From: Kandleria vitulina DSM 20405
GTDB lineage: Bacteria; Bacillota_I; Bacilli_A; Erysipelotrichales; Coprobacillaceae
Direction of reading: 5' to 3'
NCBI RefSeq assembly: GCF_000702065.1
Contig: NZ_JNKN01000006.1
Coordinates: 1-64,000, forward strand
Length of the DNA: 64,000 nucleotides
This document shows, one piece after another, positions 30,459 through 38,543 of the stretch. Numbering within the stretch: the first letter of the stretch is position 1; every line of letters begins with the position of its first letter. The notes below the pieces were generated by a model. It did no database searches. It saw only the letters and a program-made list of their open reading frames with translations, and was not told where the DNA came from. A program made the position numbers and the translations under genes.

Positions 30459-31925
30459 CTAGTCTCTTCTAAATAGATCTCGTGTGTAGACTTTGTCTTT
30501 TACATCATCAAGACATGAATTGTATCTATTGGCAATGATGGCCTGTGAAATGCGTTTGAATTCATCTAGATCATTGATAACCTTGCTGCCAAAGAAAGTT
30601 GAATGATCAGGAAGAGTTGGTTCATAGATAACGACTGTTGCCCCTTTAGCCTTGATTCTCTTCATAACTCCCTGAATAGAAGATTGTCTAAAGTTATCAG
30701 AGTTAGATTTCATTGTTAAACGATATACCCCAATGATAACCTCTTTTTCTTTACTTTCATCATAGCTGCTGTTGGCTTCATAGGCACCTGCGATTTCAAG
30801 AACACGATCCGCAATGAAATCTTTTCTTGTCTTATTAGAAGCAACAATGGCTTCAATCATGTTCTGAGGAACATTTTCAAAGTTTGCTAACAATTGCTTA
30901 GTATCTTTTGGTAAGCAGTATCCACCATATCCAAATGAAGGGTTGTTGTAATGTGAACCGATACGAGGATCAAGACAGACACCGTTGATGATCTCTTGAG
31001 TATTTAAGTTCTTGCTTTCTGCATAAGTATCTAATTCATTGAAGTAGGAAACACGTAGTGCTAAATAAGTATTTGCAAAAAGCTTAACGGCTTCCGCTTC
31101 AGTGAAGCCCATAAATAATGTATCGATGTTTTCTTTTAAAGCACCTTCATTTAATAATTCCGCAAAGATTTCAGCTTCTTTTCTGCTTGATTCATCGCAT
31201 CCTACAATAATACGAGAAGGATAAAGGTTATCATAAAGAGCCTTTGATTCTCTTAAGAATTCAGGTGAGAAGATAATACGATCAGTGTGGAATTTTTCTC
31301 TAACAGTGTTTGTATATCCAACTGGAATGGTAGATTTAATAATCATTGTCGCATGAGGATTAACTTTTAATACTAAAGAAATAACATCTTCTACAGCTGA
31401 TGTATTAAAGAAGTTTTTCTTTGAATCATAGTTTGTAGGTGCTGCAATGACCACAAAGTCAGCTTTGCGATAAGCTTCTTCTCCATCAAGAGTTGCATGA
31501 AGATCTAATTCTTTTTCTTTAAGATATTTTTCAATATAGTCATCTTGAATAGGTGATTGATGATTATTGATCATATCTACTTTCTCTTTAACAATATCAA
31601 CAGCTTCTACATGATGATGCTGAGATAAAAGCGTAGCGATGGATAATCCTACATATCCTGTACCCGCAACAGCGATATTATAGTGTTTATTAATTGTTTT
31701 CTTGACTGATCTTTTTTCTTCAAAAAGATCAGTGATATCAAAATGAAGCTGTTCAGATAGTTTTTCAAGCTGTTCAATTGAAGGAACATAGTCCATCTTT
31801 TCTGCACGGCTGATCATAGCACGGTTGATGCCAGTTGCTTCTGAAAGCATTTTTTGTGTAAAGTTTAGTTCTTTTCTTTTTGAGATAAGCGTCTCACTTA
31901 GGCGCTTCTGGGATAAAGTTTTCAT
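30459..31925 (-). CDS. UDP-glucose 6-dehydrogenase with N-terminal XRE helix-turn-helix domain
   Basis: The 488-residue protein has two parts. Residues 7-67 are a Cro/XRE DNA-binding domain ([20 protein letters not shown], then [21 protein letters not shown]). Residues ~80-480 are a full nucleotide-sugar dehydrogenase: NAD motif [38 protein letters not shown] and the catalytic cysteine in [14 protein letters not shown]. It oxidises UDP-glucose (or a related UDP-sugar) to the uronate with two NAD+. The DNA-binding domain and the two identical-type palindromes flanking its promoter point to product- or NADH-sensitive autoregulation. An AAGGAGG precedes the ATG. Confidence 0.93.
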
Positions 31926-31938
31926 TACAGTCCTCCTT

Positions 31939-31957
31939 ATGTTATTTTAAATAACAT
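31939..31957. promoter_or_regulatory. Operator O1 of the HTH-dehydrogenase operon
   Basis: ATGTTATTTTAAATAACAT is a perfect palindrome (nine-base arms, one central base). It lies between the promoter -10 and the ribosome site of the minus-strand dehydrogenase gene, about +5 to +25. Bound repressor here would block the polymerase. Confidence 0.75.
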
Positions 31958-31969
31958 TTCATAGAAAAT

Positions 31970-31998
31970 ATTATACATTATATTTAAATTAAAATCAA
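31970..31998 (-). promoter_or_regulatory. Promoter of the HTH-dehydrogenase operon
   Basis: On the minus strand, TTGATT (31998-31993), a 17-base spacer and TATAAT (31975-31970) form a consensus-like promoter. It lies between operators O1 and O2. Confidence 0.75.
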
Positions 31999-32032
31999 TT
32001 TTAGGATATAAAAATAAGCTGCTTCATTACAA

Positions 32033-32051
32033 ATGTTATTTAAAATAACAA
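32033..32051. promoter_or_regulatory. Operator O2, second copy of the palindrome
   Basis: ATGTTATTTAAAATAACAA shares 17 of 19 positions with O1. Centres are 94 bases apart, close to nine helical turns, so dimers on O1 and O2 lie on one face and could loop out the promoter between them. O2 is also upstream of the divergent jetA promoter. Confidence 0.75.
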
Positions 32052-32148: not shown

Positions 32149-33519
32149 ATGAATTTCTGGAATCTATTTGATACCTTTGATAATGAGAAATTCTTTAATC
32201 CCTTAACAGGAGAAAACCGTACAATCTATTTTCAGATCATTCAGGCTTTAATAGCGATGGCTAATAGTAGAGAAGATCTTTATGAACAGGATGCTAAAAA
32301 CAAGATATTTGATTATCAGTCTCTTCTTGAAGAAGAAGCAATGGGAAGCACACCTAATGATATATTAAAATATTTTGAAGAATGTGGATGGATCCGAAGA
32401 GAACAGTCAAGAAACGGATTAGAATACTATGTTCGTATCACATCTGAGTGTCGTATCCTGATGGATGGATTGATGAGTGTAAGAAGAGGGGCTGACAACA
32501 GTAAAGGCCATATCTTTGCCATGTATGAAATTGTCAGAGCGGCAAGCGATGATACATTTGGCTACCGTCGATTAGAACCTTACAAGCAGATTCTAGAGCC
32601 ATTGGAAATGCATAAGAATGCCTTGAAAAATGAACTTATTGATTTACGTGATAATATCCTTGCATTAATCAAGAAGCTTCTTGATACCAATGAGCTTTCT
32701 CATATGGGACATCTTTTAAGTAAAGAAGAAATGATCAAGGATTTCTTTAACAACTACTTTAGATTAAAGAATGATGGGAATGTATTGGCTTTTATTCCTG
32801 TCATCATCAACTATTGTAGAAAGCTAGAATATGAAGATGATGCCTTAATAGAAAAGATGGTCTATGATGCACCACGTGAAGATCATGTCAACCAGGAAAC
32901 AATTCGTTTAAGACTCAGCAGCATTATAAGCTTTTTGGATTATAGCTATGAAGATAATATGAACATCATTGAAAACCGTATTGATGAATATTATGTACTT
33001 GCTAATCAGCGTATACGTATGCGTTTGACTTATCATGATAGTCTTCATCCAGCTATAGAACGTTTCTTCCAGATTGTAAACAACCATCCTGATCTAATGG
33101 AAGAAAGTGTAGAGAATATTAATAAGAAATGTATCAATATTGTCAATCAGTCTTTTATAGCAAGACAGTCATTTGATTTAAAGAAGAAAAGAGATATGCA
33201 TAAAGGACGAGTAATGCCAATTAAGCCCATTGTTATTGATGAAGATACAATCAAGAAAGAACAGGAACTATTATCTCGATCAATAAATAGAGCCTACTCT
33301 AAACATAATGTCGCAAAATATATGGATGGATGGCATATTAAGGAGAAGGTACATATCAATAAGGACATGATCAAGAATAAGAAAGATGTCTTAACCTTGA
33401 TTGCTGCACTGATGTATGTAAACAATGAAGATTTCCCATATGAAATCAATATTACCGATCAAAGATTAGTGACTGATTTTTGTGAAATGCCAGATATGAT
33501 TATAAGGAGAAGAAAATAA
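32149..33519 (+). CDS. jetA: Wadjet JetA-family protein (MukF/kleisin-like)
   Basis: The 456-residue protein resembles the JetA/DUF5716 kleisin-like family of type III Wadjet: it starts MNFWNLFDTFDNEKFFNPLTGENRTIYFQIIQALI and has a winged-helix stretch (SLLEEEAMGSTPNDILKYFEECGW) and long helices. It would bridge the heads of the JetC SMC dimer with JetB, giving a MukBEF-like complex. A TATAAT at 32111-32116 is the likely -10 box. The downstream gene starts on its stop codon (TAATG), and no JetD follows. Confidence 0.85.
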   Translation: MNFWNLFDTFDNEKFFNPLTGENRTIYFQIIQALIAMANSREDLYEQDAKNKIFDYQSLLEEEAMGSTPNDILKYFEECGWIRREQSRNGLEYYVRITSECRILMDGLMSVRRGADNSKGHIFAMYEIVRAASDDTFGYRRLEPYKQILEPLEMHKNALKNELIDLRDNILALIKKLLDTNELSHMGHLLSKEEMIKDFFNNYFRLKNDGNVLAFIPVIINYCRKLEYEDDALIEKMVYDAPREDHVNQETIRLRLSSIISFLDYSYEDNMNIIENRIDEYYVLANQRIRMRLTYHDSLHPAIERFFQIVNNHPDLMEESVENINKKCINIVNQSFIARQSFDLKKKRDMHKGRVMPIKPIVIDEDTIKKEQELLSRSINRAYSKHNVAKYMDGWHIKEKVHINKDMIKNKKDVLTLIAALMYVNNEDFPYEINITDQRLVTDFCEMPDMIIRRRK

Positions 33520-34136
33520 TGATAGTAGATGAAGAGATGTATAAAGTTGCTATTAGAAAACTATTAGGTTCAACTTTTATCATGCGAAGAAAAGATAAGA
33601 AGGTCTATGACTACATTATGGATAATGAACATCGAGAATTCATTATGTCTAGACTAGAAGAAATCGGCTATGGATTAGAGTGGAATGAAGAAGATGAAAT
33701 TGTTTCATTAATCGATCTCTCTTTACAAAATGGAGAAGAGACTCCTTATAATTTCCATCGTTTTTCTCCTCATACCATCTATATGCTTTTTGTATTGATG
33801 CTTATTTATGAAGAAAAGAAAGCCAATTGGGTAGAACGTATTATCGTAAACTTTGAAGAAGTACAAGATCGACTTCAGTCATTGCATCTTGACATTACGC
33901 CATCTGAAAAAAGAAATGCCTATAAGCAGTTTAGACGCTATAATTTGATTTCAGTTAAAGATAGAGATCTTCGTCTTAATGTAGAAGAAGGAGGAACACT
34001 AGAAATCTATCCTTCTATTATGTTTTGTATGAAAGAAGAACAGTTTGCATTGGTTTTAAAAGATCTAGAAGAAAAAATAAAGGAAAGGGAAGAAGGTGAA
34101 GACAATGATTACAATGACGAGAACATGGCTGATTAA
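33519..34136 (+). CDS. jetB: Wadjet JetB-family protein (MukE/KITE-like)
   Basis: The 205-residue protein lies between jetA and jetC and starts on the last base of the jetA stop. It has two winged-helix-like segments (DYIMDNEHREFIMSRLEEIGYGLEWNEEDEI, and LDITPSEKRNAYKQFRRYNLISVKDRDLRL) expected of the KITE/MukE subunit of Wadjet and MksBEF complexes. It would bind JetA and stabilise the SMC heads. The acidic tail (EEGEDNDYNDENMAD) overlaps the jetC start by about 30 bases, so translation is coupled. Confidence 0.78.
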   Translation: MIVDEEMYKVAIRKLLGSTFIMRRKDKKVYDYIMDNEHREFIMSRLEEIGYGLEWNEEDEIVSLIDLSLQNGEETPYNFHRFSPHTIYMLFVLMLIYEEKKANWVERIIVNFEEVQDRLQSLHLDITPSEKRNAYKQFRRYNLISVKDRDLRLNVEEGGTLEIYPSIMFCMKEEQFALVLKDLEEKIKEREEGEDNDYNDENMAD

Positions 34137-37100
34137 CTGGTATGGATTTGAAAACAGCATTGATCGTGTCGGATTAATGACCGATATTACCGGAAACAAT
34201 GGATCAGGAAAATCTGCCTGGCTTGATGCGATCAAGTATGCCTACATCGGTGATACTGGATTCAACAGTTCATCTGATGCGAAAGGTACAGGCTCGAAAA
34301 AAAGAACAATTGATTCTTATGTAAGAAAGCTTATCAATGCATCAAGAAATGAATATGGCAGACCGGTTTCTCAATATAATGAAGTCTATGCCTACATCAT
34401 GCTTGAATGGTATGATGATCTCAATGATCAATATTTAATTACCGGATGTATTATCAAAGATGATGCAGCTAACACTACAGAAACAAGATGGTTCAATATT
34501 GAAAATATGTCACTCGATGATATTCATCCATTAAGTGAAGACAATATTCCTTACACTTTTCAGCAGTTTAGAAAAGTCAATGACATCAGCTATGCGCCTA
34601 ATAAAGATGAAGCATTCAATGAAGCAATGTCACTATTGGGATTAAAGATTTCTACTTACAATGAAGGAAGAAAGAATTATTTAAGAAAACTTAAATCCAT
34701 TTTGACTTATGATCCAAAAGAAGTAGGAAAGATCAGTGATTTCATTAAGAACTATGTTCTTGATGATGAAAAGAAAGTTGATATTTCTAAATTAAAGAAA
34801 ACCAAGGAAGACATTGATGAACTTAATCGTACATTAACACGTTTAGATGAAGAAATCAGTTTTATCAAAAAGATCATTGATCAATATGATCAGTATCATC
34901 ATTATGATCATATTCTTCTTCTTGATGAAATCAAGAATGCCTACAAGCGAGTTGTAGAAGCAAAGAACACTATTGAGGATATCAATAATCAAATTGAAGA
35001 AAATAAAGAAAAAAGAGCAATTTGTGAAAAAGAAAATGAATCCTTAAATGATGAAATACTTCTTCTTGCTCAAGAAATAGAAGGATTAGATGAAACATTG
35101 GATGAATGGGATGTCACTAAGTCACTTCATCATTATAAAGATAGAGAATCACAGCTTGAAGAAAAGAGAAGACAGCTTCAATTTAAAAAGCGTGATCTAG
35201 AAGAGCTGATGGGACAGCTTAGCTATATTGAAAAGAAGATCAATACATTTAGTGAAGAGAATCATCTAGATGCACTTGATCATAAGATCATTTCTCAAAT
35301 AAAGACAAAGAAAAAAGAAGCAATCTTTAACTTGCGTCGTATTGTTGAAGAGTGTGCTTCTATCAATAATGCGAAAATACCACTTCTTGAACAAAAGAAA
35401 AGAAATGTTCATACACAAAGTGTGGAAGAAAAGGATATTATTGAAGCCTTATCAAAGAATAAGTTTGTCTACCATGAAGCAAAAGAGAATCTGGCTTTAA
35501 TTAAAGATATCAAGGATGTCTTTAAAAAGAAAAATATTGATTCACCAGTAGAAATGGTCTGCAAGTATGTTACTGAAATAGATGAAGAGTGGAGAGCGGT
35601 TATTGAAAACTATCTTGGATGGAGAAGATATGATATCATCGTTGATCCTTCTTATCTTGATATTGCTCAACAGGTAAGAAACAAGGGAAATTATCCTCAT
35701 GCAAGATTGGTCAATACGTATCAGCTAAAAGATTTTGAATGTGTAGAACAGTCATTGATGGAAAAGCTTTCTGTCAGCAATATTCATGCTGCTCGTTATC
35801 TTAAGTTCCTTCTTGGAAAGATTGTCGCTATTGAAGATGACAATGTAAAAGAATATCCACGAGGCATGAAAAAAGATGGGACTGCCAGTCTTAATATGAC
35901 AATCTTCTCTTTAGATTTTCATCATGTGAACGATTATGTCTTTGGAGAAAGTGCGTTATCTTTAAATATAGAGAAACATGAAAAACATTTGAATGAATTG
36001 ATGGCATGTCTTTCTTCATTAGAAAAGAATCAGCAGTACGCTCAGGATTTCAAGAATGATTTCCAGGCAATGCTTTCTATTTTGCATGATCAGTATGATT
36101 TTGATATTGATCTTCATATAGAAGAAAACAATGAGGCATTGCTTGCATGTCAAAGTCATGTTGAAGAACTGACAAGACAGATGCATGAAAATATTGATTT
36201 TGAAAACATCCGTCATCAAAGAGAATTAGCTCTTGAAAAGAAGAAGAACAATGAACAAAAAGTAGCGAATAATCGCTATGAGATGGACAATATTGATCGA
36301 CAGATCAAGAAGCTGAAGAGTGTGCTTGATACACGTAAAAAAGAAGTAGAAGAAGCAAAGCTGGCATTAGAGGATGCAAGAGAGAAAAATGAGATTACTG
36401 CCAATGAGGCTATTAATCAATATGAAGATTATCTTTCTTCTCATAAAGAAGGCAATGTTCTTCCTGAAAGCAAGGCAAAATCTCTTCATAAGAAAAGAGA
36501 ACAGCTGGTTGCAGGCATTATGGGATTACAGGGAGAATTTGGTGGAAAGTATTATTCTGAAGCCACTATTGTCAATACGTTAGAAGCAGAGAAGATGTTC
36601 CGTCATCGTTATAATGATATTCAGATGGGCAATATTGAAATGATCAAGACAGATTTGATTGAAAAGAAATCTCATTATCGTGAAAACTTCAAGAATGAGT
36701 TTGCCTTAAAGATCCTTAAGTTCTGTAATGATGCCATGATGGAATTAAAACGACTTAATAAGGAATTAAGTGAAACAGGCTATGATACACAGTATGTCTT
36801 TGATGTACATTTTAAAGATGATTCATCAGATTATGCATCAATCATTCGTTTTGGTAAGACATTAAGTGAAGGTCTGCTTACTTTTACATCAGGTAATGTC
36901 AATATTGAAGAATTAGATCAGGAAATGGATCAGATTGTAGATGATATCATCAATTCTGATGATATTGATGACTACGCTGATTATCGTAACTACTTGTCTT
37001 ATGATATTCTCTTCAGCAATGATACAATCAAGCAGGGAAGCTTATCTAAGCAGATTGGCAGCAACTCGGGTGCCGAACTGCAGATTCCTTATACTTTGAT

Positions 37101-37359
37101 CTTAATTTCAGCTTTATTGATGATCTATAATCATCGTGATAATTCATCACGTATTCTCTTTATTGATGAACCATTTGAAAAACTTAGTCCTGATAATGTC
37201 ATGAAGATGGTAAGATTCTTCAAGGAAAAGAAACTGCAGTGTTTCTTCTGTTCAGCAAGCAATCTTGGCGATATTGGACAGGAAGCAGATGTGATTTTAC
37301 AGGCTATAAAATATGGAAAAGACAATAGCATGAAACTATTGCCATATCATTTTAAATAG
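34105..37359 (+). CDS. jetC: Wadjet JetC-family SMC-like ATPase
   Basis: The start MITMTRTWLINWYGFENS (ATG 34105) gives 1084 residues; ATG 34114 is an alternative. The N-terminal head has Walker A TGNNGSGKSAWLDAIKY. Long coiled coils (about 240-480 and 640-830) flank a hinge-like centre (NYLGWRRYDIIVDPSYLDIAQQVRNKG). The C-terminal head has the signature-like GSNSGAELQIPYTLI and Walker B ILFIDEPFEKLSPDN. It would extrude or clamp DNA loops as an ATP-driven dimer. In complete Wadjet, JetD cuts the trapped plasmid; that gene is missing here. Confidence 0.88.
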   Translation: MITMTRTWLINWYGFENSIDRVGLMTDITGNNGSGKSAWLDAIKYAYIGDTGFNSSSDAKGTGSKKRTIDSYVRKLINASRNEYGRPVSQYNEVYAYIMLEWYDDLNDQYLITGCIIKDDAANTTETRWFNIENMSLDDIHPLSEDNIPYTFQQFRKVNDISYAPNKDEAFNEAMSLLGLKISTYNEGRKNYLRKLKSILTYDPKEVGKISDFIKNYVLDDEKKVDISKLKKTKEDIDELNRTLTRLDEEISFIKKIIDQYDQYHHYDHILLLDEIKNAYKRVVEAKNTIEDINNQIEENKEKRAICEKENESLNDEILLLAQEIEGLDETLDEWDVTKSLHHYKDRESQLEEKRRQLQFKKRDLEELMGQLSYIEKKINTFSEENHLDALDHKIISQIKTKKKEAIFNLRRIVEECASINNAKIPLLEQKKRNVHTQSVEEKDIIEALSKNKFVYHEAKENLALIKDIKDVFKKKNIDSPVEMVCKYVTEIDEEWRAVIENYLGWRRYDIIVDPSYLDIAQQVRNKGNYPHARLVNTYQLKDFECVEQSLMEKLSVSNIHAARYLKFLLGKIVAIEDDNVKEYPRGMKKDGTASLNMTIFSLDFHHVNDYVFGESALSLNIEKHEKHLNELMACLSSLEKNQQYAQDFKNDFQAMLSILHDQYDFDIDLHIEENNEALLACQSHVEELTRQMHENIDFENIRHQRELALEKKKNNEQKVANNRYEMDNIDRQIKKLKSVLDTRKKEVEEAKLALEDAREKNEITANEAINQYEDYLSSHKEGNVLPESKAKSLHKKREQLVAGIMGLQGEFGGKYYSEATIVNTLEAEKMFRHRYNDIQMGNIEMIKTDLIEKKSHYRENFKNEFALKILKFCNDAMMELKRLNKELSETGYDTQYVFDVHFKDDSSDYASIIRFGKTLSEGLLTFTSGNVNIEELDQEMDQIVDDIINSDDIDDYADYRNYLSYDILFSNDTIKQGSLSKQIGSNSGAELQIPYTLILISALLMIYNHRDNSSRILFIDEPFEKLSPDNVMKMVRFFKEKKLQCFFCSASNLGDIGQEADVILQAIKYGKDNSMKLLPYHFK

Positions 37360-37380
37360 GAATCTTCGGATTCCTTTTTT
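37358..37380 (+). terminator. Intrinsic terminator of jetABC
   Basis: AGGAATC, a TTCG tetraloop and GATTCCT, then TTTTT directly after the jetC stop, close the operon before any jetD. Confidence 0.9.
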
Positions 37381-37457
37381 CAATATGTAATAATTTTAAT
37401 ACAAAGCTTCTATTGTGAACTATAATATAGATATCGCAAAAAGAAAGGGTGATACAT

Positions 37458-38543
37458 ATGAAATTATTGCGTGCAATGAGAGAACCTCTTAAATATGTAC
37501 AAGGAAGAGATGCGACTTATCATTTTTATGATGAAATGCACTATATGGGACATAGATGGCTGTTTATCTGTTCCAACAGTGGATATAAGGCTTGCCATGA
37601 TGCATTAGAAACAAGCTTTAGGGATCATGATGACTATCGTCGCTATGAAGTATTTGGTGGTCTTTCAAGCAAAAGTGAAATTGAAAAAATGAAATCCATC
37701 GTTGAAGAAGACCATATTGACGTTGTCGTTGCAGTTGGTGGGGGATCAGCTGTCGATACAGCGAAAGCAACTGCTTATTATACAGGTAAACATATTGTCA
37801 TTATTCCAACTGTAGCAGCAACTGATGCCCCATGTACTGGTCTGTCAGTAATTTATAATGATGATGGCAGCTTCAATCAGTATTTATTCTATCCAACTAA
37901 CCCTGATGCGGTGATGGTAGATAGCCAGGTGATTGCCAATGCCCCAGTGCGCTTTTTGATTGCTGGTATGGGAGATGCCTTAGGTACTTATTTTGAAGGT
38001 CGTGCATCTTATCGTACTGAATCGTCAAGTCTTGAAGGAACAGGTATTACAAGAACCGGAATGGCGATTGCGAAAACTTGTTATGACACATTGCGAGAAT
38101 ATGGCTTACAGGCTGTTCGCTCTTGTGAGGAACATGTGGTGACACCAGCTTTGGATGCTATTATTGAAGCGAATGTCTATATGTCAGGAGTAGGTGCGGA
38201 CAATGTCAATTGTGCAGCAGCACATTCATTCTATAACGGTGTGACTTCACTTGGTGGACATAGTGCTGATCACGGATGCTGCGTGGCTTTTGGGACTCTT
38301 GTACAGCTGATTCTTGAAGGTGCTTCAAAAGAAGAATTTTATGAAGTGCAGAACTTCTGTAAAGAAGTAGGTCTTCCTACTACTTTATTGAAACTAGGCA
38401 TCACGAATCATGAAGATGTGCGCACTATTGCTAAAAATGCATGCGTTGAAGGAGAAACGATTCATAATCTTGCAGGTGATGTCACTCCTGATGAACTTTA
38501 TGATGCTATTATCTTAGCAGATGCCTTAGGACAAGAACTCTAA
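37458..38543 (+). CDS. gldA: Glycerol dehydrogenase (iron-containing alcohol dehydrogenase family)
   Basis: ATG 37458 after AAAGGGTG gives 361 residues. The NAD-binding GGGSAVDTAKATAYY and PTVAATDAPCTGLSVIY, the metal ligands in GMGDALGTYFEGRAS (Asp) and the histidines in GGHSADHG are those of GldA. It oxidises glycerol to dihydroxyacetone with NAD+. No dihydroxyacetone kinase or glycerol uptake gene is adjacent, so it stands alone. Confidence 0.9.
   Translation: MKLLRAMREPLKYVQGRDATYHFYDEMHYMGHRWLFICSNSGYKACHDALETSFRDHDDYRRYEVFGGLSSKSEIEKMKSIVEEDHIDVVVAVGGGSAVDTAKATAYYTGKHIVIIPTVAATDAPCTGLSVIYNDDGSFNQYLFYPTNPDAVMVDSQVIANAPVRFLIAGMGDALGTYFEGRASYRTESSSLEGTGITRTGMAIAKTCYDTLREYGLQAVRSCEEHVVTPALDAIIEANVYMSGVGADNVNCAAAHSFYNGVTSLGGHSADHGCCVAFGTLVQLILEGASKEEFYEVQNFCKEVGLPTTLLKLGITNHEDVRTIAKNACVEGETIHNLAGDVTPDELYDAIILADALGQEL

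What the first reader, a model, noticed from the sequence alone, without database searches (positions are those of the whole stretch)
32149..37380. JetABC complex with no JetD nuclease
The three genes fit Wadjet JetA, JetB and JetC. The jetC stop is followed at once by a terminator and then gldA. In known Wadjet systems JetD is the DNA-cutting subunit. Without it the complex could act as a chromosome-organising SMC, like MksBEF lacking MksG, or use a nuclease encoded elsewhere.
Basis: partly seen in the sequence, partly recalled or inferred. Interest (0 to 1): 0.75.

Follow-up and report, generated by a model that had tools for sequence, protein, structure and literature searches.

The report
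Plasmid-defence motor missing its DNA cutter
A gut-type bacterium carries the three motor genes of the Wadjet plasmid-defence machine but no gene anywhere in its genome for the part that cuts DNA, and the same nuclease-free version turns out to be common in related small-genome bacteria, where it appears to have replaced the usual chromosome-folding complex.

Summary
Confirmed: window 32149-37359 holds an intact jetA-jetB-jetC operon closed by a terminator. No JetD was found in the window, on its contig or in the 99.93%-complete host genome, with three different profiles. Ten of ten JetC-bearing relatives from the same family carry jetD directly after jetC, so the absence is real for this locus.

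The complex cannot restrict plasmids in the known Wadjet way. The host also has its own Smc and ScpA, so this would be a second SMC complex. Its JetC is very divergent (about 22% identity to any relative) and lacks the D-loop aspartate, so a fading remnant is not excluded.

The wider result matters more. In related Bacilli (Acholeplasmataceae, Anaeroplasmataceae and kin), JetABC without JetD is the rule. Of 47 sampled genomes with JetC but no ScpA or Smc hinge, 42 have no JetD. Trees require at least two independent JetD losses. There JetABC looks like the only condensin. Nuclease-less Wadjet-group complexes (MukBEF, some MksBEF) are already known, so the window locus is a new member of a known kind. 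I found no description of the Smc replacement in these families.

The parts
32149..33519 (+). jetA: kleisin subunit, 456 aa
   Evidence: Pfam PF18982 E 4e-49, PADLOC JetA1 248 bits; AlphaFold model matches Wadjet-II JetA and MukF chains
33519..34136 (+). jetB: KITE subunit, 205 aa
   Evidence: DUF4194 E 3e-17, PADLOC JetB1; AlphaFold model matches JetB and MukE chains
34105..37359 (+). jetC: SMC ATPase, 1084 aa from ATG (ORF listing opens at GTG 34096)
   Evidence: PADLOC JetC1 PDLC00516 1446 bits; family profile matches solved JetC 9qxt/8as8 over full length, E 8e-39; Walker A K36/S37 and Walker B D1021/E1022 kept; T38A, T992L and D-loop D1028S changed
37358..37375 (+). intrinsic terminator, stem AGGAATC-TTCG-GATTCCT then T run
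   Evidence: fold -8.8 kcal/mol, z -3.0
37449..38543 (+). GldA-like iron-containing dehydrogenase; downstream neighbour, not part of the system
   Evidence: Pfam Fe-ADH E 9e-25
30459..31925 (-). HTH plus UDP-glucose dehydrogenase fusion; divergent upstream neighbour, not part of the system
   Evidence: Pfam HTH_3 and UDPG_MGDP_dh domains

Best explanation
The locus encodes a nuclease-free Wadjet-group SMC complex: JetC ATPase dimer, JetA kleisin, JetB KITE. It most likely binds and extrudes DNA loops as an accessory condensin beside the host's Smc-ScpAB, in the manner of MksBEF without MksG, and does not cut plasmids. Shown: intact genes, subunit folds, absence of JetD, presence of Smc and ScpA. 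Inferred: DNA translocation, a chromosomal role, and that JetD was lost from a four-gene ancestor.
For: Intact operon with full-length subunits and Walker A/B catalytic residues kept. No JetD by three profiles, while 10 of 10 JetC-bearing relatives in the same family have it adjacent. The same D-less three-gene arrangement is stable in two other Bacilli lineages that lack Smc and ScpA, where the operon sits with housekeeping genes such as sepF, rsmE or ptsI. Several Wadjet-group complexes, MukBEF included, lack MksG/JetD (PMC7617805). MksB promotes long-range chromosomal contacts beside Smc in Borrelia (PMC10406323).
Against: The window's JetC is the most deviant of 133 JetCs at conserved columns (29 of 83; median 1), including the D-loop aspartate and the Thr after GKS, so its ATPase may be weak or altered. 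The host already has Smc and ScpA. The tree does not place it with the D-less clades. No close relative was found, so purifying selection could not be measured.
Confidence: 0.5

Rival explanations
1. It is a Wadjet remnant: JetD was lost, and the remaining three genes are under relaxed selection and on the way out.
For: Very long branch and many losses of conserved residues in JetC; all other JetC operons examined in the family still have JetD.
Against: All three ORFs are full length, with gene overlap, terminator and catalytic residues kept. The protein scores 1446 bits to a PADLOC profile of its own, which suggests that similar proteins exist elsewhere.
Confidence: 0.27
2. The complex still restricts plasmids using an unlinked or unrelated nuclease.
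For: G295 has a JetD on a contig other than that of its listed JetC; Toprim and other nucleases exist in most genomes (established knowledge).
Against: No JetD-like protein in G000 even at E <= 1; no PADLOC nuclease hit among the seven neighbouring genes scanned; JetD is the only known partner.
Confidence: 0.1
3. A divergent or unassembled jetD exists and the system is ordinary Wadjet.
For: The genome is in 75 contigs; the window JetC belongs to a separate PADLOC cluster whose JetD, if any, could be divergent.
Against: Completeness is 99.93%, the operon is inside a contig and closed by a terminator, and the JetD profile scored every linked JetD among the named loci at 130-590 bits across phyla.
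Confidence: 0.08

Closest known systems
Wadjet type I (JetABCD / MksBEFG)
   Same: JetA, JetB and JetC families, gene order, subunit lengths, jetB/jetC overlap
   Different: No JetD/MksG nuclease in operon or genome; JetC in a separate PADLOC cluster (PDLC00516; relatives checked are PDLC00519) with altered ATPase motifs
MksBEF without MksG, and MukBEF
   Same: SMC plus kleisin plus KITE operon with no nuclease; may coexist with Smc-ScpAB as MksBEF does in Pseudomonas
   Different: Sequence is nearest to type I JetABC, not to MukBEF; function untested
JetD-less JetABC of Acholeplasmataceae and Anaeroplasmataceae (found here)
   Same: Same three-gene operon, no JetD in the genome
   Different: Those hosts lack Smc and ScpA; the window host has both; JetC only about 20% identical

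Membership tests
Wadjet type I (JetABCD) | JetA kleisin | tested here: met
   PF18982 E 4e-49; fold match
Wadjet type I (JetABCD) | JetB KITE | tested here: met
   PF13835 E 3e-17; fold match to JetB 8dk1/8as8
Wadjet type I (JetABCD) | JetC SMC ATPase | tested here: met
   PADLOC JetC1 1446 bits; catalytic Walker residues kept
Wadjet type I (JetABCD) | JetD Toprim nuclease linked or in the genome | tested here: not met
Wadjet type I (JetABCD) | Cleavage of small circular plasmids | not testable with these tools
   needs transformation or cleavage assay
Wadjet type II | JetC2-type ATPase (about 1360 aa) | tested here: not met
   JetC2 profiles score at most 48 bits against 1446 for JetC1; protein is 1084 aa
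Nuclease-less MksBEF/MukBEF-like condensin | SMC, kleisin and KITE genes in one operon without MksG/JetD | tested here: met
Nuclease-less MksBEF/MukBEF-like condensin | Intact ABC ATPase motifs | tested here: inconclusive
   Walker A Lys/Ser and Walker B Asp/Glu kept; Thr38, signature Thr992 and D-loop Asp1028 changed
Nuclease-less MksBEF/MukBEF-like condensin | Role in chromosome organisation | not testable with these tools
   no phenotype data

The most novel reading that the evidence does not exclude
Wadjet has been converted from plasmid defence into a housekeeping condensin at least twice in small-genome Bacilli, losing JetD and taking the place of Smc-ScpAB. The window locus is a third, independent case, caught while Smc-ScpAB is still present.
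Probability: 0.3. Interest if true: 0.82.

Novelty: new member of a known kind. Interest (0 to 1): 0.6.

Why it matters
Whether condensins such as MukBEF arose from defence systems like Wadjet is an open question (PMC10586767). Two separate lineages in which JetD and Smc-ScpAB are both missing while JetABC is kept give a natural test: JetABC should be essential there and dispensable where Smc-ScpAB is present. It also warns annotators: defence catalogues label these JetC proteins Wadjet although the cutting subunit is absent.

Tried and rejected
Single-sequence scans of genome and viral contigs with the window JetC, and of plasmids with JetA, found no relative; a plasmid search with JetC gave only about 20-24% identity, and a profile scan of viral contigs found none. 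JetD profile A1 found no solved structure by sequence. Looked for a JetD-docking signature in JetA and JetB N-termini: JetD-plus and JetD-minus proteins look alike there, so no test came of it. A single origin of JetD-less JetABC in Acholeplasmataceae plus Anaeroplasmataceae was rejected (AU p 3e-5). Grouping the window with the D-less or the D-plus clades could not be rejected either way (AU p 0.09-0.19).

Full report
Observation. The window holds an intact jetA (32149-33519), jetB (33519-34136) and jetC (ATG 34105-37359) operon, followed by a hairpin terminator at 37358-37375 and a GldA-like gene. JetA and JetB are recognised by Pfam and PADLOC, and their AlphaFold models (moderate confidence, pLDDT about 74) have Wadjet JetA/JetB and MukF/MukE among their best matches in the PDB. 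A JetC family profile matches solved JetC chains over the full length.

JetD is absent. PF09983 and PF11795 find nothing in the host genome, nor does PF09983 at E <= 1. A profile from nine JetD proteins, which recovers linked JetDs at 130-590 bits across phyla, finds none in the host. No significant JetD trace was found in the window or on its contig up to 79 kb. In the same family, 10 of 10 other JetC genomes examined have jetD directly after jetC. The genome is 99.93% complete and the operon is not at a contig end.

Comparison. In a sample of 392 genomes of the phylum, 56 have a strong JetC match and 258 have ScpA. Of the 56, 47 lack ScpA; those 47 also lack any SMC hinge other than the one inside JetC itself. 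JetC presence and ScpA absence go together (47 and 9 against 87 and 249; Fisher p about 1e-16, ignoring phylogeny). Of the 47, 42 have no JetD over the cut-off. The exceptions are G181, G346 and G352, with JetD linked to JetC and no ScpA or Smc, and G199 and G295, where JetD lies away from the best JetC; G199 has a second JetC beside its JetD. The D-less operons sit with housekeeping genes: sepF follows jetC in all 11 f21 loci fetched, rsmE and mtaB in f22, ptsI or pepC in much of f11 (sepF, ptsI and rsmE domains confirmed; pepC and mtaB named by eye).

Names. Contig lengths that coincide with titled records suggest f21 is Anaeroplasmataceae, f11 Acholeplasmataceae (for example Peloplasma aerotolerans) and the window's family f1 the group of Thomasclavelia and Massilimicrobiota, i.e. 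Coprobacillaceae. Among 80 titled JetC loci, 59 have JetD next to JetC (Clostridia, Spirochaetia, Coprobacillaceae, Haloplasmataceae and others). The 18 informative D-less loci are labelled Mycoplasmatota, nearly all Acholeplasmatales or Anaeroplasmatales, or, for the four with other labels, group with them in the tree; three more end too close to jetC to tell.

Trees. Two D-less clades are separated by D-plus lineages, and one clade is rejected (AU p 3e-5). That implies at least two JetD losses if the four-gene form is ancestral. The window JetC is on a very long branch and cannot be placed. It belongs to PADLOC cluster PDLC00516, while four relatives checked, D-plus and D-less, belong to PDLC00519. 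It has 29 deviations at 83 conserved columns, against a median of 1; the next most deviant, L022, does have JetD, so deviation alone does not mean loss of function.

Reading. The window complex is best seen as a nuclease-free Wadjet-group SMC complex beside Smc-ScpAB, with a remnant as the main rival. The literature already says several Wadjet-group members lack MksG/JetD (PMC7617805) and treats the evolutionary link between defence and condensin complexes as unresolved (PMC10586767). I found no paper in the held library describing loss of Smc-ScpAB with retention of D-less JetABC in these Bacilli families; the library is partial, so this is not proof of novelty.

Limits. JetC in the phylum sample was scored at E <= 1e-70, so 87 ScpA-less genomes without a listed JetC may hold weaker ones. 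Smc absence rests on hinge and ScpA profiles.

Noticed in passing
window 30459-31925 (-) and 31940-32050: An XRE-type HTH is fused to a UDP-glucose dehydrogenase, and two perfect palindromes TGTTATTTNAAATAACA (31940, 32034) lie between it and jetA; shuffles gave at most one match. They look like operators.
   Followed up: partly
genomes f21, f22, f11, f20, f8, f4: Small-genome Bacilli with JetABC but no Smc hinge, no ScpA and mostly no JetD: JetABC appears to be the only condensin.
   Followed up: yes
G199: C16 and C10: One genome carries a D-less jetABC followed by sepF and a separate JetC-JetD locus.
   Followed up: partly
G181, G346, G352: Genomes without Smc and ScpA whose JetC is linked to JetD: exceptions to the D-less pattern.
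   Followed up: no
L104 (G066): A second genome with Smc and ScpA and a D-less jetABC, like the window; a weak JetD_C match lies on another contig.
   Followed up: partly
L021 (G020): jetC is split by a stop codon into two ORFs (one search reports one TGA inside the match), with jetD still present.
   Followed up: no
L152, L173: Metagenome bins labelled Clostridium and Erysipelotrichaceae carry JetC that groups with Anaeroplasmataceae; labels may be wrong.
   Followed up: no
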